Below, one piece after another: positions 32,046 to 41,574 of a DNA stretch of 41,574 nucleotides. Within the stretch, counting starts at the first letter, position 1. The number at the start of each line of letters is the position of its first letter. Origin of the DNA: Thiotrichaceae bacterium (GTDB lineage Bacteria; Pseudomonadota; Gammaproteobacteria; Thiotrichales; Thiotrichaceae); NCBI GenBank assembly GCA_026991755.1, contig JALXAX010000173.1, positions 1 to 41,574 on the forward strand, written 5' to 3'. The position numbers and the translations under genes are program-made. A model generated the notes under the pieces. The model was given only the letters and a program-made list of their open reading frames with translations, had not been told where the DNA came from and did not search any database.

Positions 32046-34271
32046 ATGAAATCGATTACTATGATTAAAAGACTAATCATTCTTGTAATGTTAGCCACAT
32101 TACTTACTGCCTGTGGTGGGGGAGGTAACACAGATACAACTACCCCAGCAACATCTACTAATACAACAGTGACTGCCCACCTTGATGGTCGAATTAGCAT
32201 ATCAGGAAAAGCTGAAAGCAATTCAACGGTAACTGTCACTTTCCCTGATGGCTCGCAACAGACGACTACTGCGGGTGCAAATGGCGATTATCAACTCACT
32301 AGTGCTGGTGCACAGCTTGCAGGTCAAGCACGAGTTACCAGTACTAACTCTGATGGTACTGTCTCACAACCTATAATTCTGTCTGCTAATGAAATTAATC
32401 AAGCTCTATTTTCCGTAATAGATACAACACCTTCGCTTTCCTTTACTCCTTCTCTTGGAATTAATACAGAAGCCCCACAAGGCGGAGCCGATACAGCAGG
32501 TTTACCCATGCCTTTTGTTGATATTTTCCGTACTGCTCGTCCTTTTAAAGAGTTATCACCTGTCGGTACTAGCTACGATAATAATGGATGGCCAACGGAG
32601 TTTGCTAGTGGAAGTAACTTTGCTAGAACCAAGTTATTACAGGGCGCGTTAAAGGGATCAATCCCTAATGGACAATATACGGTACTTTATGACGGTGCAG
32701 GCAGCTTAGAGTTTGGATCTACCGGTACAGTAACCAACATCAAGAAGATATCAGGTGAAAATAAATACACCTTCAATTTTTCGCTTAGAGATTTTGCGGG
32801 TGATGGTGGAGCGGCAGCTGCGGATACCAACGCGATCAATATGAATATTAAAAATATTTCTGCTGGAAATGGTAACTATATGAAGAATATCCGTATCGTT
32901 ATGCCCGGTGGGACGTGTAGTGGTAACCCCTTTCTTCGAGTTGATTCAGATGAAGACTGCCCAAGCGGAACAACGTACGAGTCCTTTGCTGACCGCTTAC
33001 AAACAAACAGAAATGCTATCATTTTCAACCCTGACTACTTGCTATTCCTAAGAAACTTTAAAGTTATCCGCATGATGAACCTGATGGAAGCTAGCCTTAA
33101 AAGGCTATGCTTTACCGCTGAAGACTGTCCTGCCGTAGTCGGCACTTGGGATCATCGAGCAAAAATGAATGATGCGGTTTGGGGCGGTAATGATGGTAGG
33201 ACAGCGGATGAGGATCATAACGGAGTCCCCGTTGAGGTCATGATAGCGCTAGCTAACACCATTAAACGTGATATTTGGGTCAATATGCCACATATTGCGA
33301 GTAATAATTATGTTACTCAATTTGCCAGACAAGTCTCTAGCCAATTGAACCCCTCTTTAAAAGTCTACATTGAATACACTAACGAAGTATGGAACTCAGG
33401 GTTTGCTGGCTATAACTATTCAATATCCGAAGGCACAAAGTTATCACTAGATACCGTTCCACCTGATGTTATCGCCTATTGCGATGGGCTTTCTGAGGAT
33501 ATAAGACTCAGCAACACGCGGTGCTTTGGCGATTACTATGCGCGCCTACGCTTTTACAGCCAACGCGCCGTAGAAATATTTAATTTATGGAAGGCTGAAT
33601 TTAACAACAATAATACCCGACTAGTTCGTGTACTTGGCTCCTTCATTGGTGACACAACACTCACAGACCTCATGCTTGAGCATGTTGGACCTAACAATGT
33701 TGATGCCGTTGCTATTGCTCCTTATTTTTTTGGTTGTCCTGCTCCAGAGCGATGTCCAAGAGCAGCGAAGTCTCTTCTTACCGCTCAAACGGTAGATGAT
33801 ATTTTTGAGGTCATTGACCAACTAGGAAAGGATGCGGAGGGTAATTTTGTTGATGTGAAATCATTAGATGGAACGATAGATTCTATTAAAAGGCAGCTAG
33901 TTGTTACAAACAGCAAAGGCGTTAAACTTCTCACTTATGAAGGGGGACAACACCTAGTTACAGGTGTTCTCGGTAGTAGTGCATCTGCAAGTGAACAAAC
34001 ACGTTTAAGAGCCTTATTTAATAACGCTAACCGTGACCCACGGATGAAGCAACGCTATTTGCGACTTCTCAATGAGTGGAAGAATTTATCGAACGATGGC
34101 ACGACTCTATTCACGCTTTATACCCTACCTCAATCCTATTATCGCTTTGGTAACTTCGGCATTAAAGAACATCTAAATAAACCACGTTCTGAGTCACCGA
34201 AATTTGATGGAGCTATGGAATTTCAAGAAAGCGTCGGTGATTGCTGGTGGGTAGGCGTCGGATGCCGATAA
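32046..34271 (+). CDS. Large lipoprotein with Ig-like and clan-A glycosidase-like regions
   Basis: A 741-residue exported protein. The lipobox is LLTAC (Cys24), followed by GGGG and a Thr-rich linker. A bacterial Ig-like domain follows at about 43-115 (GRISISGKAESNSTVTVTF; GANGDYQLTS). The rest resembles a (beta/alpha)8 glycosidase: YIEYTNEVWNSG, where the NE pair fits an acid/base Glu, and LLTYEGGQH, where Glu could be the nucleophile. The substrate and family number are unknown; similar proteins have been labelled cellulose-binding. Six or more cysteines may form disulfides. It ends 114 bases from the convergent sctL stop. Confidence 0.7.
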   Translation: MKSITMIKRLIILVMLATLLTACGGGGNTDTTTPATSTNTTVTAHLDGRISISGKAESNSTVTVTFPDGSQQTTTAGANGDYQLTSAGAQLAGQARVTSTNSDGTVSQPIILSANEINQALFSVIDTTPSLSFTPSLGINTEAPQGGADTAGLPMPFVDIFRTARPFKELSPVGTSYDNNGWPTEFASGSNFARTKLLQGALKGSIPNGQYTVLYDGAGSLEFGSTGTVTNIKKISGENKYTFNFSLRDFAGDGGAAAADTNAINMNIKNISAGNGNYMKNIRIVMPGGTCSGNPFLRVDSDEDCPSGTTYESFADRLQTNRNAIIFNPDYLLFLRNFKVIRMMNLMEASLKRLCFTAEDCPAVVGTWDHRAKMNDAVWGGNDGRTADEDHNGVPVEVMIALANTIKRDIWVNMPHIASNNYVTQFARQVSSQLNPSLKVYIEYTNEVWNSGFAGYNYSISEGTKLSLDTVPPDVIAYCDGLSEDIRLSNTRCFGDYYARLRFYSQRAVEIFNLWKAEFNNNNTRLVRVLGSFIGDTTLTDLMLEHVGPNNVDAVAIAPYFFGCPAPERCPRAAKSLLTAQTVDDIFEVIDQLGKDAEGNFVDVKSLDGTIDSIKRQLVVTNSKGVKLLTYEGGQHLVTGVLGSSASASEQTRLRALFNNANRDPRMKQRYLRLLNEWKNLSNDGTTLFTLYTLPQSYYRFGNFGIKEHLNKPRSESPKFDGAMEFQESVGDCWWVGVGCR

Positions 34272-34278
34272 ATATGAT

Positions 34279-34334
34279 AACCGGCTATAACTGCTAATGC
34301 TCTGTTCAACTCAGCAAGCAGGCACCGGTTTTTT
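34279..34334 (+). terminator. Candidate terminator after the large lipoprotein gene
   Basis: AACCGG (34279-34284) pairs with CCGGTT (34325-34330) directly before TTTT. The loop is long (40 bases) and contains a smaller CTGCT/AGCAG pairing. It begins eight bases after the stop codon. Confidence 0.4.
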
Positions 34335-34385
34335 CAACCTGAGACAGGCATTCAACTCCAAGTTTGGGAATACCCAGAAATCTTT

Positions 34386-35033
34386 CTAGCTATTAGGCTC
34401 TACAGATTTTCGTTCTTGTAACTTCCCAATAACATGTTGCTTAACTGCTTTCTCAATAGCCTGAAGCTGGGAGTCAATACTTGCATCAACGATACCTATA
34501 TCAGACTCAATAATACAATCAGTCTCTCCTAACTTGGGGTCAGGCAAGATTTCAAGAAATTCAATTTCATGTTTAAGTGTATCTATCTGCGATGACAAAA
34601 ACGGAATAGATTGTGGATTAACTCGAATAGCCACTTTGTTGCTGTTATAAACAGGTAGTAAACCCTTTTTTACGGCCTCAAGAACTAGCTCATCATTATC
34701 ATAATCGGCTATGATTTTTCGTACTGCAGAAATAACAACATCCGTTAAATCTTTCTCTATATCAGATAGCTGTGTCATCAAAGAAGAGGCCGACTTTAGC
34801 ATCTGACTTGCCATTCTTGCTTTCGCTTCTTCTGCACCCTTGATAAGACCGCTTTCAATTGAATTTAGCCTTAGTTGTTCGGCCTCAGCTTTATTTTTTT
34901 CTCTATCTTTCTGTGACTCATGCCATAGATCTTTAGCTGTTTTATACTGAACGTAATCATCTGATTTAATGACCTTAACACCAGGTTTTACCTGTGGAGC
35001 AAGTCCATTTAATTGAATAAAGTTTGCAACCAT
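34386..35033 (-). CDS. sctL: T3SS stator protein SctL
   Basis: A 215-residue YscL/HrpE-type protein, related to flagellar FliH and ATPase stators, which normally anchors the SctN ATPase. A long helical N-terminal region (DREKNKAEAEQLRLNSIESG) is followed by a globular part (VISAVRKIIADYDNDELV, KVAIRVNPQSIPFLSSQI, PDPKLGETDCIIESDIGIVD) typical of this family. It is the last T3SS gene in the block, 5 bases after sctK. The ATPase gene sctN, which often follows, is absent; the next gene is an unrelated lipoprotein on the opposite strand. Confidence 0.82.
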   Translation of the reverse strand: MVANFIQLNGLAPQVKPGVKVIKSDDYVQYKTAKDLWHESQKDREKNKAEAEQLRLNSIESGLIKGAEEAKARMASQMLKSASSLMTQLSDIEKDLTDVVISAVRKIIADYDNDELVLEAVKKGLLPVYNSNKVAIRVNPQSIPFLSSQIDTLKHEIEFLEILPDPKLGETDCIIESDIGIVDASIDSQLQAIEKAVKQHVIGKLQERKSVEPNS

Positions 35034-35038
35034 TCCAT

Positions 35039-35713
35039 CTACCTCTTATCGACGTTTAGTTCATTCATTATAGTTTCGATAATAGCCATATTGCCAGATG
35101 CCCCTCCAGGAATTTTATTATGAACAGAATAATGAACATAAGCATCAAACCATTTACGTGGTAGTTTAACGACAAGTCTTTTCAACAAGGGGGCAGGATA
35201 GCCTTTCATAGCTGTAAATAGGGAAATCAATCCTGCTATTAACACCTTTTGCTTGATAGACATAGCATTCGGTAAGTCTATCTGTTTCAATTGTTTTCTC
35301 TTCAGATGTGGAGCACGTGTGAGCGCAAAATCATATAACTTAGACCCCAGATCTAGACGATATTTACGAACTTCTTTCTGTACTATTTGCTGTCTTATTT
35401 CATCAAAATAAAACATAATGCCAACATAATAGACAAGCTTTTGAAGGTCTTTTCCATGCCATAGTGCAAGCTTCGTAATCGGGTCTGAGAAATCAAAAAA
35501 GAATTTTCCATTAAAACCGAGTTGAGCCATTAAATGATGGGACAAACGAGTAGAACTCTGACTACTATCTTCATGAATTAGCTTATGCAACAATTCCGCA
35601 TTAGGTAAGTCATTTACCCATGATTCATGCACATAGCGCTCAGGCTTATAGTTAAATTCCCACACGGAGTATGGAATTTTATCTTTTGGCTTTTTACTAG
35701 ATGGAACAGTCAT
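35039..35713 (-). CDS. sctK: T3SS sorting-platform protein SctK
   Basis: A 224-residue soluble protein in the yscK/hrpB4 position. SctK proteins bridge the SctD cytoplasmic domains and the SctQ-SctL sorting platform. Visible features include a Trp-rich N terminus (YSVWEFNYKPERYVHESWVN) and helical stretches (LALWHGKDLQKLVYYVGIMF). Sequence conservation in the family is low, so the call depends largely on synteny between sctJ and sctL. It starts 21 bases after sctJ. Confidence 0.7.
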   Translation of the reverse strand: MTVPSSKKPKDKIPYSVWEFNYKPERYVHESWVNDLPNAELLHKLIHEDSSQSSTRLSHHLMAQLGFNGKFFFDFSDPITKLALWHGKDLQKLVYYVGIMFYFDEIRQQIVQKEVRKYRLDLGSKLYDFALTRAPHLKRKQLKQIDLPNAMSIKQKVLIAGLISLFTAMKGYPAPLLKRLVVKLPRKWFDAYVHYSVHNKIPGGASGNMAIIETIMNELNVDKR

Positions 35714-35734
35714 AATAGTTATACGATATCCACA

Positions 35735-36331
35735 CTATTTCTTATTAATTTGAGCAGGCAACATGACTACAGAGACCTTATCGTAAGTTAGACCTTCGAT
35801 ACTCTTCTCAACAATCAATTTAATCTCAGATTTGATATCCGATAAATTAGTCCTTGGATGATATTTTATAAATACCGAAGCGGAGGATGGGGTCACCTTA
35901 TCATTGTAGGGATTATTTTCTGGCATAACGATATGTACCCGAGCAACAATGACACCATCAATATTTGTCAGCGTCTCTTGGACACTTTGCGATAGGGCAT
36001 AAATGTAACGTACACGTTCTTCTGTCGGTGACGACACAAGCCCTTCTTTCTTGAAAAGGTCTTTTATACTGGCAACTTTCTCTTTTGGATAACCATATTC
36101 CTTTAACAATCTGACAGACTCTGGGATTTTAGACTCATCTATCATCAAGGAGTAAGACTCACCTTTTTTAGACTTAACTTTTTCGGCATCTATCCCATTA
36201 CTCAGCATCAGTGCAAGCATGTCATTCACATCACTTTCTGTTAAATCGTTGTACAACTCCATTTGACAAGATGAAACTAGAAACACTGCTACAATAATTA
36301 TTAGGCTTTTTATTCTTTTATAGTTATTCAT
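35735..36331 (-). CDS. sctJ: T3SS inner-ring lipoprotein SctJ, no C-terminal helix
   Basis: A 198-residue YscJ/HrcJ/PrgK-family lipoprotein that forms the inner-membrane ring. The lipobox VSSC gives Cys22. Family motifs: LYNDLTESDVNDMLALMLSN, GYPKEKVASIKDLFKKEGLV, YIYALSQSVQETLTNIDGVI, ARVHIVMP and ASVFIKYHP. It ends at VVMLPAQINKK, before the transmembrane helix that YscJ (about 244 residues) and HrcJ normally carry, and sctK begins 21 bases later, so no helix can be encoded. It is separated from sctI by about 615 bases holding a MITE. Confidence 0.9.
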   Translation of the reverse strand: MNNYKRIKSLIIIVAVFLVSSCQMELYNDLTESDVNDMLALMLSNGIDAEKVKSKKGESYSLMIDESKIPESVRLLKEYGYPKEKVASIKDLFKKEGLVSSPTEERVRYIYALSQSVQETLTNIDGVIVARVHIVMPENNPYNDKVTPSSASVFIKYHPRTNLSDIKSEIKLIVEKSIEGLTYDKVSVVMLPAQINKK

Positions 36332-36765
36332 TTTTATAGTTATTCATTATTTATAGTACATAAAGTATTGAAGTACATTATCTTCACACGTCTAAGCTAA
36401 AAACTTGATAGAGGTGTGATTTATTTACGACCTTCAACTGTTAAGAGCGTTTCAGCAGTATCCTGAGTATACTCGTACCAAGTCTTACCGAAGTTTATCG
36501 AAGGTATGGAACCCTACACAACATCTATAACCAAATTAATGCTAACCTGAGGTATTAATAATATTTAAAATAAGGTTAGCATATGGGTAATCAGGTACAT
36601 TATTATATTTTTTTATAGTCCATCATCTCGCTTCTTGTCACCATTGAACAATAATGTTAGTTATTACATAAATTTTGATACAGCTTGCTAAGATTAGTAA
36701 TCTATCCAATAAAATTTATTGGCTTAATAAAAACTTTACATCGTTTTTAAGAGTAGAGATCTTAT
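36332..36765. other. Intergenic gap in the T3SS block, hairpin only
   Basis: AT-rich sequence upstream of sctJ with no gene recognised. ATGCTAACCT (36539-36548) pairs with AGGTTAGCAT (36573-36582). A TATAGTTATTCATT unit is tandemly repeated at the sctJ start (about 36320-36352). Unusually long for an operon of otherwise closely packed genes, it may have been added together with the MITE next to it. Confidence 0.45.
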
Positions 36766-36924
36766 GAGACCTTTGCATGAAAGGATGGCGAGAGAAAAAT
36801 GAGCGTAATTTTCTCTATTTTTGCTAAAAAAGAGGGTAATAGCCGAGCTATTGGCCGAATTTTTAGCAGAAATTGAGGAGATTCAAGCCATTTTTATCCG
36901 TCATATCTTTCGTGCAAAGGTCTC
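36766..36924. mobile_element. 159-bp MITE, copy 3, between sctI and sctJ
   Basis: Starts GAGACCTTTGCATGAAAG, ends CTTTCGTGCAAAGGTCTC, with the 5-bp target duplication CTTAT (36761-36765 and 36925-36929). It lies within the T3SS gene row, 23 bases after the end of sctI. Confidence 0.93.
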
Positions 36925-36947
36925 CTTATATATAGATTTGTAGAAAA

Positions 36948-37517
36948 CTAACCTGCTGATCTAAACAATGTTTTAAAACCTTGACTTGCCTGGCTCACTA
37001 CCGTAGTTAATATTTTTATATTCGCAGACCAAATCTGAGTTTTAATATGCCATTTCGATATTTCTTTAGAATACCCACCCGCAGTTTTATACAAATCCCG
37101 GGTTTCTTCTAACATGTCTTGAACCTCATTAGCTGGATCCTTCTCAACCGTTTCATGTACGTTAGTACGAACAGCCGGTGCCTTATCATTATGTTGCATC
37201 TCCAGAAACTTATCGAACTCTGGCACATCATTCATTTGGTTCATAATAGCTTTATATGAACTATCTAACCTAGACAAAGGGTTACTAACGGTAGGATTTG
37301 TATCAGAACCATCCATCTGCAGTAAATCGCTATCAATCCGAGCGGAATCTACTTTGACATCCTGTAATAAATGAGCCTCTGAGACATCCGATTTCTTTTC
37401 TGTTAACTCCATATTAAATCGCATGACATCATCATTCTTTGCAGCATGAGGTTGCTTTGATATATCTGATATTGATGCTGCTTGAGCCCCTTGTGCAGAA
37501 ATTAGTTGTTCGATCAT
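36948..37517 (-). CDS. sctI: T3SS inner rod protein SctI
   Basis: A 189-residue YscI/HrpB2-type protein that forms the rod below the needle. The C-terminal segment (KWHIKTQIWSANIKILTTVV, SQASQGFKTLFRSAG) has the family's amphipathic pattern ending near Leu-Phe-Lys. The N-terminal 150 residues form a long polar extension, making it longer than YscI (115). A perfect AGGAGAG ribosome site precedes the ATG at 37517. There is no sctH between sctG and sctI. Confidence 0.8.
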   Translation of the reverse strand: MIEQLISAQGAQAASISDISKQPHAAKNDDVMRFNMELTEKKSDVSEAHLLQDVKVDSARIDSDLLQMDGSDTNPTVSNPLSRLDSSYKAIMNQMNDVPEFDKFLEMQHNDKAPAVRTNVHETVEKDPANEVQDMLEETRDLYKTAGGYSKEISKWHIKTQIWSANIKILTTVVSQASQGFKTLFRSAG

Positions 37518-37577
37518 AATACTCTCCTCGTTATACAGACATCACTAGCAGAGATATACTCATCATTTAAAAATGAG

Positions 37578-37967
37578 TTATACCGCTTGTTTGGCTTCAG
37601 TCATTTCTGCAAGATAAAAACTTGCTATCGTACGATCATCTTCACCACCATGTTCAATGATGTCATTAAACAATGCTATTGCTTCATCGACATCACCTGA
37701 TTCACTAAGTGCCATCCCAAGGAAACACTTAGCAGTCATATTCTCTGGCTCATCAGTGAGCACATTTTCTTTCAATATTCTTATTGCGTCTTCATATTGA
37801 CCTGCATAGATTCTAGAAATTGCAACACCAACAAGCGCTGCTGATTGTCCGCCGCAGTTTGCTTCTACGCTGTCCATTATGAGTTGCCCTTTATCAACGT
37901 CACCATTGAAGCAGGCTAAATACCCAACTTGTGATAATAGTTGGATCATTTCAGTACTAATTTCCAT
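37578..37967 (-). CDS. sctG: T3SS needle chaperone SctG (YscG/HrpB1 type)
   Basis: A 129-residue TPR-like protein: paired helices carry IYAGQYEDAIRILKENV and MALSESGDVDEAIALFNDII. In the Ysc system YscG binds YscE and the needle monomer YscF in the cytoplasm, preventing early polymerisation. Its place after sctF fits ysc order. The HrpB1/HrpK family is the alternative label. Confidence 0.72.
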   Translation of the reverse strand: MEISTEMIQLLSQVGYLACFNGDVDKGQLIMDSVEANCGGQSAALVGVAISRIYAGQYEDAIRILKENVLTDEPENMTAKCFLGMALSESGDVDEAIALFNDIIEHGGEDDRTIASFYLAEMTEAKQAV

Positions 37968-38054
37968 AAGATTTATACCCTCTTTGATTTTATAATTATG
38001 TTTTTAATGGGACTTTGATAACTTGACTAAACCGTACTTAGTTTAATCAACAAA

Positions 38055-38126
38055 ACCTAGCTTGACGAATCAAGCTAGGTACATCTTAAGGAAACTCCAA
38101 CCAGACTCGATCAGAGATTCCTTAAC
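38055..38126 (-). terminator. Hairpin pair between sctF and sctG
   Basis: A perfect 10-bp stem (ACCTAGCTTG at 38055-38064 with CAAGCTAGGT at 38071-38080, six-base loop) is read on the minus strand just before TTTTGTTG. A second inverted repeat (TTAAGGAAACTC with GAGATTCCTTAA, 38086-38125) lies between it and the sctF stop. Together they could partly stop transcription after the needle gene and give more needle protein than downstream products. Confidence 0.5.
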
Positions 38127-38138
38127 TAACTAGTGAAA

Positions 38139-38366
38139 TTAACTAGCTAACTGTTGTGATGTTTGCTGAGCTGTATTACCAATTGCCTCAGCCATTGCAT
38201 TTAGTCGATCAGTAGCAGCTTTATGCATCTGAAATTCCATATTCAATTTTGCTGACTCGCTTTGATAAGACATCGTTGCTTGCATTTGGCTTTTCTGCTC
38301 TGTTAATAAACCTTGCAGGTCTTTAACTCCACTTGAAGCACCAGCTGTCAAATTTGCACCATCCAT
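38139..38366 (-). CDS. sctF: Putative needle or filament subunit in the SctF slot
   Basis: A 75-residue, almost wholly helical protein (MDGANLTAGASSGVKDLQGL; QSESAKLNMEFQMHKAATDR; LNAMAEAIGNTAQQTSQQLA). Size, abundance-type ribosome site (AGGAGATTTACA) and place between SctE and SctG suggest the needle. It lacks the Pro-Asp/Asn-Pro loop seen in YscF, PrgI and MxiH. Alternatives are an HrpE/HrpY-like pilin or another small secreted protein. Synteny supports the slot more than sequence does. Confidence 0.5.
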   Translation of the reverse strand: MDGANLTAGASSGVKDLQGLLTEQKSQMQATMSYQSESAKLNMEFQMHKAATDRLNAMAEAIGNTAQQTSQQLAS

Positions 38367-38501
38367 TGTAAATCTCCTAAGTTCAATAAAGTATTGTTTC
38401 TTGATAATTCAATCAAACACAAAGAAACAAAAAAAATAAAAAATGTTGTGTTCTACATATTTCCAAAAAAACTTTAGTATCCCTGCACCAATAAGTACTT
38501 T

Positions 38502-38699
38502 CTAGTACTGTTCTACCACTGAAACACTTGCTTCTACAGCCTGTAGAAGCTTATTTAAATTCTCATACTCATCAGGGGCTAAGCCTTTATTAAGCTCACT
38601 CCTTATATCTACTTCAAAAGAACTAAACTTGCCCAGCAGTTCTTTCTTATATTCACCTGTTGAATCATCTTTCAGATTACTTTCGATATCTAGCATCAC
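38502..38699 (-). CDS. sctE: YscE-like needle co-chaperone SctE
   Basis: A 65-residue helical protein (KKELLGKFSSFEVDIRSELN; DEYENLNKLLQAVEASVSVV). Length and heptad-like pattern resemble YscE (66 residues), which pairs with YscG to hold the needle monomer. The start is GTG at 38699 or the next codon ATG at 38696; AGGA is better placed for the GTG. It follows sctD by five bases. The match is by size, pattern and gene order. Confidence 0.6.
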   Translation of the reverse strand: MMLDIESNLKDDSTGEYKKELLGKFSSFEVDIRSELNKGLAPDEYENLNKLLQAVEASVSVVEQY

Positions 38700-38704
38700 T
38701 TTTA

Positions 38705-40018
38705 TTATTCCTTTTTTTGTCCAAAATATATTGGAAATATAATGTTATTATTATTTAGCAGTATATGGTCATCATTTATTGATTCAATATAATAATTACT
38801 ACCCACATGTGATCCTTTAAAATACTTATTTCCTTCCTTTGAAACTACAAATGGAACCTCACCAACACTTACACTTCTAATTGATAGTTTTATATCTGCA
38901 TCTGGAGCACGTATCGACTCTCTAAACTGAAAAGGATATGGGCTATTATCCATAAACTCTCTTTTAAGTTGTATCCAACGCGCTTCTTCTGCTTTTGTCA
39001 GTTTTCCTCTTGCAGTAATCATTGTTTTTTCTAGTCCAAGCTCTAAGCGTTTAGAAAACTCTTCTGCTAAGACTTTTTGTTCTAAAACAGAATAAATCTC
39101 TCGAAGGTTCTTAACATCATCATCATTAATTGATGTAACACCAAGAACATCACCTCGAATATTCTCTTTTACGCTTATCCACTTAGCTCTGTTATCTGTC
39201 AAACCATTTGCTTTTAGTCGTCCATGATCTAATGTAGTAAACGTTATTTCATTCTCACCTAAAGACTGAGCAATCATTCTTGCGTTATCTTCTAACTCAG
39301 TGTCAACAAAATAGTGAGAAACCACATCACCTTCAAAATTACTAATATCTCTTTTTAGTAAAGATTTCTCTGCTTCGTTACTCACATAACCATTAATATG
39401 AATCTTTCCATCTATACTCTTCACATAAATACTGGGGTATTTTTCCACCCTAATCATTGAGCTTATTCTTTGATCTGCCGTTTCAGTTAAACCTAGCAGT
39501 CCTGATATTCCTCCGTACTGTTTCGTTAAATACTGAACATTTGCCAATAGCATGATCACTGCAGCTAGCCACAACCAAGGGTTACTAAATAGTGATGTTT
39601 TCTTACTATGGTCGCTTTTGCTCCTTCTTTCTAAGTATTCACCTTGTGTGTTAGTAGTACTACTAACTGATAACTGTTTTGTTTTTGCATCATCGCCTGG
39701 CCAAGACTGTTGTTTATCCGCTATTGTAAAGTCAACAGTACCTATATTAACCAACTGATTCGGCTGTAGAATGATTTCATTAGATCCCACATCCCTACCA
39801 TCAATGTAAACAGGCTGGGCTAGCGGTGTTAAACGAATTCTTCCTTTATCTAACTCAACAGCTACATGTCTATCGGCTACGTTGGCTCCGTTAAAGATGA
39901 TGTCACATCCTGCAGATCTGCCAATAACCAAGCCTGAAGTATTTCCTAAGTCTGCTGTCGCACCTTCGTTGACTCCTGACAATACCTTCACTACATATTG
40001 TACATTTTGTTTTATCAT
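38705..40018 (-). CDS. sctD: T3SS outer inner-membrane ring protein SctD, FHA type
   Basis: A 437-residue YscD/PrgH-family protein. Cytoplasmic FHA domain at about 10-100 (LVIGRSAGCDIIFNGANVAD, RHVAVELDKGRIRL), linker, a single helix at 147-163 (NPWLWLAAVIMLLANVQYL), then periplasmic ring-building domains (IYVKSIDGKIHINGYVSNEA; DHGRLKANGLTDNRAKWISV). It forms the inner-membrane ring with SctJ and contacts SctC in the periplasm. It follows the sctC-like gene by 30 bases, as in ysc loci. Confidence 0.9.
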   Translation of the reverse strand: MIKQNVQYVVKVLSGVNEGATADLGNTSGLVIGRSAGCDIIFNGANVADRHVAVELDKGRIRLTPLAQPVYIDGRDVGSNEIILQPNQLVNIGTVDFTIADKQQSWPGDDAKTKQLSVSSTTNTQGEYLERRSKSDHSKKTSLFSNPWLWLAAVIMLLANVQYLTKQYGGISGLLGLTETADQRISSMIRVEKYPSIYVKSIDGKIHINGYVSNEAEKSLLKRDISNFEGDVVSHYFVDTELEDNARMIAQSLGENEITFTTLDHGRLKANGLTDNRAKWISVKENIRGDVLGVTSINDDDVKNLREIYSVLEQKVLAEEFSKRLELGLEKTMITARGKLTKAEEARWIQLKREFMDNSPYPFQFRESIRAPDADIKLSIRSVSVGEVPFVVSKEGNKYFKGSHVGSNYYIESINDDHILLNNNNIIFPIYFGQKKE

Positions 40019-40048
40019 TTATAGTAACCCTTAGATCGACGGCATTCT

Positions 40049-40738
40049 TTACTTGATACGTGGTTTACTTATCACCACCTCTTGCTCATCACTTTTAGTT
40101 ATTTTTATTTCGGTTATTTGTCTATGTTTATCAGGCATATCTGAACCAAAGTTTGTAATGCCGTTGTCATCAACCCATTTATAAACTCGTTTACCCGATA
40201 CGTTTTTATCAAGTACTTTTGACATTTCTAGCACGGCTGTAACGAAAGGCTCAGGACCTTTAAAATAGACCATCTTATCGATATCGGATGAGATCCATTG
40301 ATAATGATGATCTAGAATTCCTAAACGTTCTAAGGAGTGCGTAAACTGTGTAGCAGATACATTAGTAAGGCTCACACTTCCCGTTTGCATTTCTTCTTCA
40401 CGTTCAACAAATAACGTATCTCCATCGTAATACCAAACCAAGCCATTTGATTTGAGAATATCCAAGAAGATACTCTTAGGTGTTTGTCTTTTATAATAAC
40501 CACTTACTACTGCGTCTATTTTATCGCTCAATATAATGGGCGTTTTTTGCGAAGCAGCTACGGCTCTTAGTAATGAGCTAAGAGGCTCTTGATCTGAGTA
40601 ATGTGTGTAGGATGTATCATTCCACTGTAAATCTTTTGCTTCTATTTGTTGCAAGCAAAGCAATACAAAAGAAAGTGAACTAACTACTATGTACCGAGCT
40701 AGAGGATTTGAAGTTATATTTATCATTATTGAACCCAT
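40049..40738 (-). CDS. sctC: SctC secretin N-domains fused to a DUF4124-like module (no pore)
   Basis: A 229-residue exported protein: signal peptide (SSLSFVLLCLQQIEA, cleavage near residue 34), then N0 (LSSLLRAVAASQKTPIILSD, KIDAVVSGYYKRQTPKSIFL, DILKSNGLVWYYDGDTLFVE) and an N1-like part (VSATQFTHSLERLGILDHHY; YFKGPEPFVTAVLEMSKVLD) that align by eye with YscC. At the point where secretins enter N3 and the beta-barrel, it instead carries YKWVDDNGITNFGSDMP, a DUF4124-like motif, and stops. Secretins normally exceed 500 residues. Rhizobial RhcC1/RhcC2 are a known split pair; a partner pore gene could lie elsewhere. Confidence 0.72.
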   Translation of the reverse strand: MGSIMINITSNPLARYIVVSSLSFVLLCLQQIEAKDLQWNDTSYTHYSDQEPLSSLLRAVAASQKTPIILSDKIDAVVSGYYKRQTPKSIFLDILKSNGLVWYYDGDTLFVEREEEMQTGSVSLTNVSATQFTHSLERLGILDHHYQWISSDIDKMVYFKGPEPFVTAVLEMSKVLDKNVSGKRVYKWVDDNGITNFGSDMPDKHRQITEIKITKSDEQEVVISKPRIK

Positions 40739-40846
40739 ACATTCGTTATATGAATATTAGGTTACAAATTAACAACTACAACTAATAGCCTGAGGATGAC
40801 AAAAACACCCATTAAGATTATAAGCGGTCAGAATAAGTACATTCCA

Positions 40847-40868
40847 CATAGCCCAGTCTATGTGGGTT
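40847..40868. other. Small hairpin upstream of the sctC-like gene
   Basis: CCACATAG pairs perfectly with CTATGTGG around a six-base loop, about 110 bases upstream of the sctC-like start on its transcribed side. It might be an operator or the terminator of something upstream. The plus-strand frame at 40796-40987 crossing it does not look like a protein. Confidence 0.3.
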
Positions 40869-40991
40869 ACTCTATACTGATATCTCTACCTAGAAAAACG
40901 GACAGCTCAAGAAGCGAGTTTTTTGTAATAATCTCATATGTTATTTTCTCTTTCTTGAATTGGTGGTCAACTCAAGATGAGGTTTAGCACT

Positions 40992-41050
40992 GAGCCGTCT
41001 CAACGGCACAGCCTTTTGCTTGCCACGCCCACAGGACGTGGTTATCTAAG
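40992..41050 (+). mobile_element. Possible IS200/IS605-type right end
   Basis: Two adjacent small hairpins (CCGTCTCAACGG and CCACGCCCACAGGACGTGG) are followed by TTATCTAAG, then directly by the fpr fragment. This layout resembles right ends of IS200/IS605 elements, where a terminal hairpin precedes the cleavage site. No TnpA or TnpB reading frame remains. This is a shape-based suggestion only. Confidence 0.3.
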
Positions 41051-41332
41051 TTTCAATATAATAATGGTGAACACCCTGACACCTTTCAATTTATTCCGAT
41101 TGTAAGCCGCGAAGATCACAAAGGAGTTTTGAAAGGGAGAATTCCAGAACTCATTGATAAAGGTGCTTTGGAGAAAGCAGCTTCACTCACTATAAGTAAA
41201 GAGGACTCACACGTGATGTTGTGTGGAAATAGTGGCATGTTAAAAGATACCAAGGCGGTACTTAAGCAAAGAGGTATGGATAGACACCTAAACCATAAGC
41301 CAGGACATGTTTCCTCAGAGCAATATTTCTAG
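41048..41332 (+). pseudogene. fpr: 5'-truncated ferredoxin/flavodoxin-NADP reductase
   Basis: The frame reads FQYNNGEHPDTFQFIPIVSR, then LKGRIPELIDKGALEKAA, SHVMLCGNSGMLKDTKAVLK and a C-terminal HKPGHVSSEQYF. These are the NADP-binding half and C terminus of bacterial Fpr (about 258 residues): the VMLCGN motif and terminal aromatic residue are characteristic. Only about 95 codons remain; the FAD-binding half is missing and the upstream sequence looks like an insertion-element end. A TTG at 41129 could start a 67-residue frame, but a functional product is unlikely. Confidence 0.85.
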
Positions 41333-41387
41333 GGTTAGAAATACACCATCTCAAACTTTGGCAACCACTTACAGGTAGGTGTTACCT

Positions 41388-41571
41388 CAGGGCTGTTCAA
41401 TGCTAAATGAACTAAGCTCCCTCTCCCCTTTGGGGGAGGGCTGGGAAGGGGGGAGATGTTCTAAGGTCGTCTTTTTTATCAGACTATCTACCCCCTCCCT
41501 AACCCTCCCCCTGCTAGGTGGAGGGAACTTTGTCTATTCCATGAACAGATTCCTAGCATTGAACAGCCCTG
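41388..41571. repeat. 184-bp terminal-inverted-repeat element
   Basis: Perfect 18-bp inverted ends CAGGGCTGTTCAATGCTA and TAGCATTGAACAGCCCTG. Inside, CTCCCTCTCCCC and GGGGGAGGG and their near-complements form further stems. It has no coding capacity, so it is MITE-like and unrelated to the 159-bp family. The right flank is too short to see a target duplication. Confidence 0.8.
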
Positions 41572-41574
41572 GGT

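What the first reader, a model, noticed from the sequence alone, without database searches (positions are those of the whole stretch)
40049..40738. T3SS secretin gene reduced to N0-N1 and capped by a DUF4124-like module
The gene sits exactly where sctC belongs, 30 bases upstream of sctD, and its N0 and N1 regions look intact with a signal peptide. The pore-forming part is absent and replaced by a short module with the YKWVDDNG motif. It is not simple decay, because the frame closes cleanly and the added module has its own family pattern. Split secretins are known in rhizobia (RhcC1/RhcC2), but fusion of the N-domain piece to a DUF4124-like module is, to my knowledge, not described. It might recruit a secretin encoded elsewhere or act as a periplasmic adaptor.
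Basis: partly seen in the sequence, partly recalled or inferred. Interest (0 to 1): 0.85.

Follow-up and report, generated by a model that had tools for sequence, protein, structure and literature searches.

The report
Type III secretion ring lacking its pore
A family of sulfur bacteria (Thiotrichaceae) carries a complete-looking protein-export machine in which the outer-membrane pore protein has been cut down to its two docking domains and capped with a different small domain, so the way its cargo crosses the outer membrane is an open question.

Summary
The 229-aa gene at 40049-40738(-) has a signal-peptide-like N-terminus, T3SS-secretin N0 (Pfam E 1e-8), N1 (AlphaFold model superposes on InvG N1: Z 11.0, 1.3 A over 63 residues) and a DUF4124 module (E 1.1e-5). 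N3 and pore are absent. It is neither frameshift nor decay: orthologs occur in 36 of 63 genomes of the family Thiotrichaceae (6 genera); 15 of 16 aligned members match DUF4124, and their tail matches DUF4124 (hhalign E 6e-13), not secretin N3. In sister genomes it lies inside one intact T3SS locus without a secretin gene; in 11 near-closed genomes no secretin on the T3SS contig lies within 100 kb, and T3SS-negative relatives carry secretins too. The same architecture appears once outside the family (G224). Rhizobium etli RhcC1-without-RhcC2 and the Myxococcales T3SS are precedents for a missing pore gene, not for the DUF4124 cap. Spore-coat-type transglutaminases without a Sec signal occur only in T3SS-positive genomes of the family (19/38 vs 0/25), usually beside sctC1: possible cargo. 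Best reading: a periplasmic adaptor ring on SctD in a pore-less T3SS; how cargo crosses the outer membrane is unproven.

The parts
40049..40738 (-). sctC1: 229-aa pore-less SctC, signal peptide-N0-N1-DUF4124
40637..40738 (-). signal-peptide-like N-terminus (residues 1-34)
   Evidence: hydrophobic core, mean hydropathy 2.62 from residue 17; cleavage after A34 is inferred, no signal-peptide program was run
40400..40609 (-). N0 domain (residues about 44-113)
   Evidence: PF21304 match at 50-111; TIGR02516 from residue 44
40202..40390 (-). N1 domain (residues about 117-179)
   Evidence: AlphaFold model vs InvG N1, Z 11.0, rmsd 1.3 A over 63 residues; Secretin_N in 9 of 16 orthologs
40082..40195 (-). 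DUF4124 module (residues 182-219) with YKWVDDNG
   Evidence: PF13511 E 1.1e-5; hhalign of the family tail vs a DUF4124 set E 5.7e-13, vs secretin N3 no match
38705..40018 (-). sctD: FHA-type cytoplasmic domain, BON-like periplasmic domains, Y4YQ_C C-terminus
   Evidence: the three BON-like models match below their cut-offs in this copy; sister proteins
38502..38699 (-). sctE (65 aa, needle co-chaperone family)
   Evidence: PF08988 E 9e-5
38139..38366 (-). 75-aa protein in the sctF (needle) position
   Evidence: position and conserved short relatives; no significant Pfam match
37578..37967 (-). sctG, TPR chaperone
   Evidence: TPR matches; CdsG similarity of the ortholog
36948..37517 (-). sctI candidate (inner rod), by position and conservation only
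   Evidence: no significant Pfam match to an SctI family
35735..36331 (-). sctJ lipoprotein ring
   Evidence: PF01514 E 4e-26
35039..35713 (-). sctK
   Evidence: PF06578 E 3e-17
34386..35033 (-). sctL stator
   Evidence: PF06635 E 3e-10, FliH E 1.5e-16

Best explanation
The protein is the periplasmic docking ring (SctC1) of a non-flagellar T3SS that has no secretin pore of its own. It is exported by Sec, and its N0-N1 domains stack on the periplasmic domains of SctD, as the N-terminal rings of InvG do. Where a normal SctC continues into N3 and the outer-membrane barrel, this one ends in a DUF4124 module that probably binds another envelope component. I think the most likely partner is an outer-membrane channel encoded outside the locus, a PilQ- or GspD-type secretin being the leading candidate; purely periplasmic delivery is the close alternative. 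The likely cargo is not host-directed: spore-coat-type transglutaminases and collagen-like proteins encoded in or near the T3SS locus. Shown: domain make-up, family-wide conservation, absence of a linked secretin, an intact T3SS core in sister genomes, and the transglutaminase association. Inferred: ring formation, SctD docking, the DUF4124 partner, the route across the outer membrane, and the cargo.
For: Domains. Conservation in 36 of 63 family genomes and 6 of 8 genera, all as short ORFs. An intact T3SS locus with sctQRSTU, V, N, O, C1, D, E, F-position, G, I, J, K, L and no secretin in G017; overlapping stretches of the same set in other genomes. Secretins: only PilQ-like and GspD-like in the own genome; in 11 near-closed genomes no secretin on the T3SS contig lies within 100 kb (positions); g2 and g4 genomes without T3SS carry secretins too. 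Positive control: the same search finds the split pore gene in the G425 locus. SctD keeps BON-like domains and a Y4YQ_C end that weakly resembles the GspC/GspB region, which in T2SS meets the secretin N0 domain (own knowledge). A DUF4124 protein, TfpC, maintains type IV pili in Neisseria (PMC7593972). Transglutaminase in 19 of 38 SctV-positive and 0 of 25 SctV-negative genomes, Fisher p 9e-6, beside sctC1 in 13 of the 19; no Sec-like N-terminus in the nine checked.
Against: No direct evidence that N0-N1 oligomerises or touches SctD here, and none for PilQ or GspD as partner. T3SS-positive G021 (98% complete, one secretin hit) and G035 (97%, none) lack the usual pair, although both are fragmented assemblies. 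The T2SSC/T2SSB resemblance of SctD is weak (E 0.0005-0.06). DUF4124 has no known biochemical role. Fisher's test ignores shared ancestry of the genomes. The window's own T3SS is split over two contigs and carries a repeat between sctI and sctJ, so it may be impaired in this strain.
Confidence: 0.55

Rival explanations
1. The system has no outer-membrane passage at all: it delivers its substrates into the periplasm, and the DUF4124 cap merely anchors or closes the N0-N1 ring, for example at peptidoglycan.
For: No secretin in the locus; precedent of the pore-less Myxococcales T3SS and of needle subunits accumulating in the periplasm of secretin mutants (PMC3459982).
Against: The sctE/F-position/G set is kept, and the collagen-like and transglutaminase candidates look more like surface or matrix proteins.
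Confidence: 0.25
2. SctC1 works with an outer-membrane protein that is not a recognisable secretin and is encoded elsewhere.
For: All ORFs of at least 55 aa in the G017 locus were listed and none looks like an outer-membrane channel, so such a partner would have to be unlinked.
Against: No candidate gene was identified; nothing was searched genome-wide for such a partner.
Confidence: 0.12
3. It is a degrading T3SS: sctC lost its pore and the rest persists as a relic.
For: In the window genome the locus is split over two contigs and a dispersed repeat lies between sctI and sctJ.
Against: The same intact short ORF and nearly all core genes persist in six genera with invariant residues in the added module; PMC3459982 argues that T3SSs are rapidly deleted once they lose function.
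Confidence: 0.05
4. Assembly error or frameshift hides a downstream secretin domain.
For: None found.
Against: sctD starts 30 bases downstream, and the same architecture appears in dozens of independent assemblies, several of one contig.
Confidence: 0.01

Closest known systems
Rhizobial RhcC1 (NolW) of the Rhc T3SS, with RhcC2
   Same: A separate N0-N1 protein encoded beside T3SS genes; SctD of the Thiotrichaceae system ends in the rhizobial Y4YQ_C domain.
   Different: Rhizobial and Rhc-like clusters usually encode a Tad-type RhcC2 pore (PMC3459982, PMC3574062); here no such pore exists in the genome, and the RhcC1-type proteins scanned with Pfam, the R. etli one among them, lack DUF4124.
Rhizobium etli subgroup III T3SS
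   Same: Only rhcC1, no rhcC2 (PMC3574062): a T3SS with the N-domain piece and no pore gene in the cluster.
   Different: R. etli RhcC1 (L156:20039-20587) ends without DUF4124, is very divergent, and that cluster lacks sctO and sctD according to the paper.
Myxococcales secretin-less NF-T3SS
   Same: No secretin (PMC3459982).
   Different: The Myxo systems also lack SctF and are not reported to have an SctC N-domain protein; here N0-N1 and the sctE/F-position/G genes are kept.
SctC secretins of the InvG/MxiD/YscC type
   Same: N0 and N1 by sequence and structure.
   Different: N3, the secretin barrel and the C-terminal domain are absent; DUF4124 in their place.
DUF4124 proteins such as TfpC
   Same: The YKWVDxxGxxxYS module in an exported protein.
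   Different: Here it is the C-terminal cap of a T3SS ring protein.

Membership tests
SctC T3SS secretin | N0 and N1 domains | tested here: met
SctC T3SS secretin | C-terminal secretin pore domain (PF00263) | tested here: not met
   TIGR02516 positions 2-141 only, no PF00263 at the locus
Non-flagellar T3SS (the system) | core sctN, Q, R, S, T, U, V, J, D | tested here: met
   SctV groups with T3SS, apart from FlhA (100/100)
Rhc-type split secretin (RhcC1/RhcC2) | separate N0-N1 protein | tested here: met
Rhc-type split secretin (RhcC1/RhcC2) | partner RhcC2 pore gene | tested here: not met
   only PilQ-like and GspD-like secretins in the genome; the control locus G425 shows the partner
DUF4124 (PF13511) | above gathering score | tested here: met
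   26.0 vs 22 bits; 15 of 16 members at E <= 0.01
Injectisome delivering effectors into host cells | translocon and tip proteins | tested here: inconclusive
   none recognised among the locus ORFs, but such proteins evolve fast and were not searched genome-wide
Protein-glutamine gamma-glutamyltransferase (Tgl) as cargo | T3SS-dependent export | not testable with these tools
   association only

The most novel reading that the evidence does not exclude
A conserved lineage of T3SSs replaced its own outer-membrane pore by a DUF4124 coupling module that docks the basal body onto another machine's secretin (type IV pilus or type II secretion), and uses it to export self-assembling matrix proteins (collagen-like) with their cross-linking transglutaminase rather than host-cell effectors.
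Probability: 0.2. Interest if true: 0.92.

Novelty: new variant of a known kind. Interest (0 to 1): 0.72.

Why it matters
Secretins are treated as a defining part of the injectisome. A conserved T3SS that keeps the docking domains, lacks the pore and carries a new cap in a family of environmental sulfur bacteria would show that the inner-membrane machine can work with another exit, or without one, and it gives a natural system for testing how T3SSs acquired or lost secretins. The transglutaminase and collagen-like neighbours suggest a T3SS role in building cell-surface material rather than attacking hosts.

Tried and rejected
Hidden downstream pore or frameshift: rejected (sctD starts after 30 bases; conserved in many assemblies). 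Remnant of secretin N3 mimicking DUF4124: rejected (hhalign tail vs N3 probability 0.2, vs DUF4124 97.9). Full-length AlphaFold model with two sequences: uninformative (pLDDT 50); the DUF4124 part was not covered by the fold matches, so its fold stays unidentified. Burkholderia tblastn hits proved to be full-length SctC (682 aa). Whether this T3SS lost a secretin or never had one: the SctV tree leaves the backbone unresolved (the tree held one wrongly framed FlhA row and was rebuilt without it); G657, with a full-length SctC and 50% SctV identity, argues mildly for loss. Rfam: nothing in 34000-41574. Promoter and terminator scan near sctC1: not above shuffles. The first NGR234 plasmid regions fetched missed its T3SS genes and were not used.

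Full report
Observation. The ORF at 40049-40738(-) encodes 229 aa and is followed after 30 bases by sctD. Pfam finds T3S_SPI-1_N0 at 50-111 (E 1e-8) and DUF4124 at 182-219 (E 1.1e-5), both above gathering. The NCBIfam SctC model is matched only over positions 2-141 of 463; InvG N0-N1 is the best solved relative (E 4e-14). A model of residues 117-215 (pLDDT 77) superposes on InvG N1 with Z 11.0 and 1.3 A over 63 residues. The N-terminus is signal-peptide-like.

Conservation. Orthologs occur in 36 of 63 genomes of the family, in 6 of 8 genera. Their open frames are 183-306 aa long, and each one read in full carries the [YF][KR]Wx[DN]xxG motif after N1 (the script did not resolve the frame of locus L021, which one search shows as an open 220-aa frame). 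Of 16 aligned members, 16 match N0 and 15 match DUF4124; W188, G193 and P202 in the module are invariant. The tail aligns with stand-alone DUF4124 proteins (probability 97.9, E 5.7e-13) and not with secretin N3 (probability 0.2). Locus L024 is titled Thiotrichaceae bacterium isolate S141_29; its contig has the same length as that of the G014 hit, so I take them to be the same genome and call the family Thiotrichaceae.

System. In G017 one continuous locus carries sctQ-R-S-T-U, an NfeD-like protein, a STAS protein, sctV, sctN, sctO, sctC1, sctD, sctE, a 76-aa protein in the sctF position, a TPR sctG, an sctI candidate, sctJ, sctK and sctL. The order C-D-E-F-G-I-J-K-L resembles that of the Yersinia ysc operon (own knowledge). 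Other genomes show the same set over the stretches fetched: G014 stops at its contig end before sctK; several complete genomes have sctKL on the other side of sctO; sctS was not called in the G044 stretch. In the window's genome the halves lie on two contigs: C86 (L028) holds a collagen-like gene to sctO and continues with unrelated sequence, and the window holds sctC1 to sctL.

No pore gene. PF00263 finds two secretins in the own genome, on C142 and C130, which read as PilQ and GspD (my reading of the sequences). Across the family, T3SS-positive and T3SS-negative genomes alike carry secretins. In 11 near-closed genomes (G047, G049, G050, G052, G054, G055, G056, G059, G060, G061, G062) no secretin on the T3SS contig lies within 100 kb of sctV (distances worked out by hand). 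As a positive control the same search finds a 431-aa RhcC2-like pore inside the G425 locus near its N0-N1 protein.

Outside the family. Among 369 genomes of the class, G224 (another family) has the same SP-N0-N1-DUF4124 protein next to sctD, its DUF4124 match being below gathering (E 0.0019), and only two secretins of 705 and 724 aa. None of the other four held genomes of its order has it. G122 and G256 have short N0-N1 proteins without DUF4124, and G425 has the split type. In 398 genomes of the phylum, the other hits are mostly full-length SctC or rhizobial RhcC1-type proteins, and the RhcC1-type proteins scanned with Pfam, including that of R. etli, show no DUF4124. These are samples, not exhaustive searches.

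Tree. SctV of the family groups with T3SS and apart from FlhA (100/100), but the T3SS backbone is unresolved. G657, with a full-length SctC, is 50% identical in SctV, so loss of a pore is plausible but not shown.

Possible cargo. A protein matching spore-coat-type transglutaminase (PF20085) lies between sctC1 and sctQ in many genomes. Over its cut-off it occurs in 19 of 38 SctV-positive and 0 of 25 SctV-negative family genomes (Fisher p 9e-6, not corrected for ancestry), beside sctC1 in 13 of the 19 (positions); the own genome has one on C96. The nine checked lack a hydrophobic Sec-type start but share a hydrophobic stretch starting near residues 36-56, and a conserved FDC[AS][TS]P motif holds the likely catalytic cysteine (inference). 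Collagen-like proteins lie next to sctQ in G017 and the own genome. Export by this T3SS is a hypothesis.

Mechanism. I infer that N0-N1 form a ring on SctD, whose periplasmic domains and Y4YQ_C end are kept, and that DUF4124 takes the place of the pore as a contact to something else. The link of DUF4124 to type IV pili through TfpC (PMC7593972) and the weak T2SSC/T2SSB similarity of SctD make a PilQ/GspD partner the leading guess; periplasmic delivery is the close rival.

Known work. Abby and Rocha (PMC3459982) describe Myxococcales T3SSs without secretin and the RhcC1/RhcC2 split. Gazi et al. (PMC3574062) report that R. etli has rhcC1 and no rhcC2. Searches of the held library for T3SS with Thiothrix or Thiotrichaceae, DUF4124 with secretin, and truncated SctC gave no description of this architecture; subscription papers are largely missing from that library.

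Noticed in passing
G000:C96:15489-16175 (L063:5348-6628), and beside sctC1 in G037, G039, G044, G047, G048, G050-G052, G054-G056, G060, G062: Spore-coat-type transglutaminase homologs (PF20085) without a Sec signal, found over the cut-off only in T3SS-positive genomes of the family.
   Followed up: partly
L031:17025-19607, L028:282-974: Collagen-like proteins encoded next to sctQ.
   Followed up: partly
L031:11805-12633, L028:5230-6284: NfeD-like membrane protein and STAS protein inside the T3SS operon between sctU and sctV; a STAS gene also occurs near the T3SS of G657.
   Followed up: no
window 36898-36920 and 4349, 6326, 18076: A dispersed repeat (CCTTTGCACGAAAGATATGACGG) has four copies in the window; one lies between sctI and sctJ, where the sister genome G017 has almost no spacer.
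   Followed up: partly
window 41388-41571: Small element with 18-bp perfect terminal inverted repeats at the contig end.
   Followed up: no
window 41093-41334: Apparent C-terminal fragment of a ferredoxin-NADP reductase-like gene upstream of sctC1 (my reading of the sequence).
   Followed up: no
G037:C35:162317-162523: Decayed second copy of sctC1 (two stops) between two transglutaminase genes, suggesting duplication of the unit.
   Followed up: no
L060:2114-2713, L061:2440-3057: Short N0-N1 SctC proteins without DUF4124 in another gammaproteobacterial family (G122, G256); whether a pore gene serves them was not settled.
   Followed up: partly
L052: A DUF4124 domain fused to what looks like a glutaredoxin domain in another genome.
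   Followed up: no
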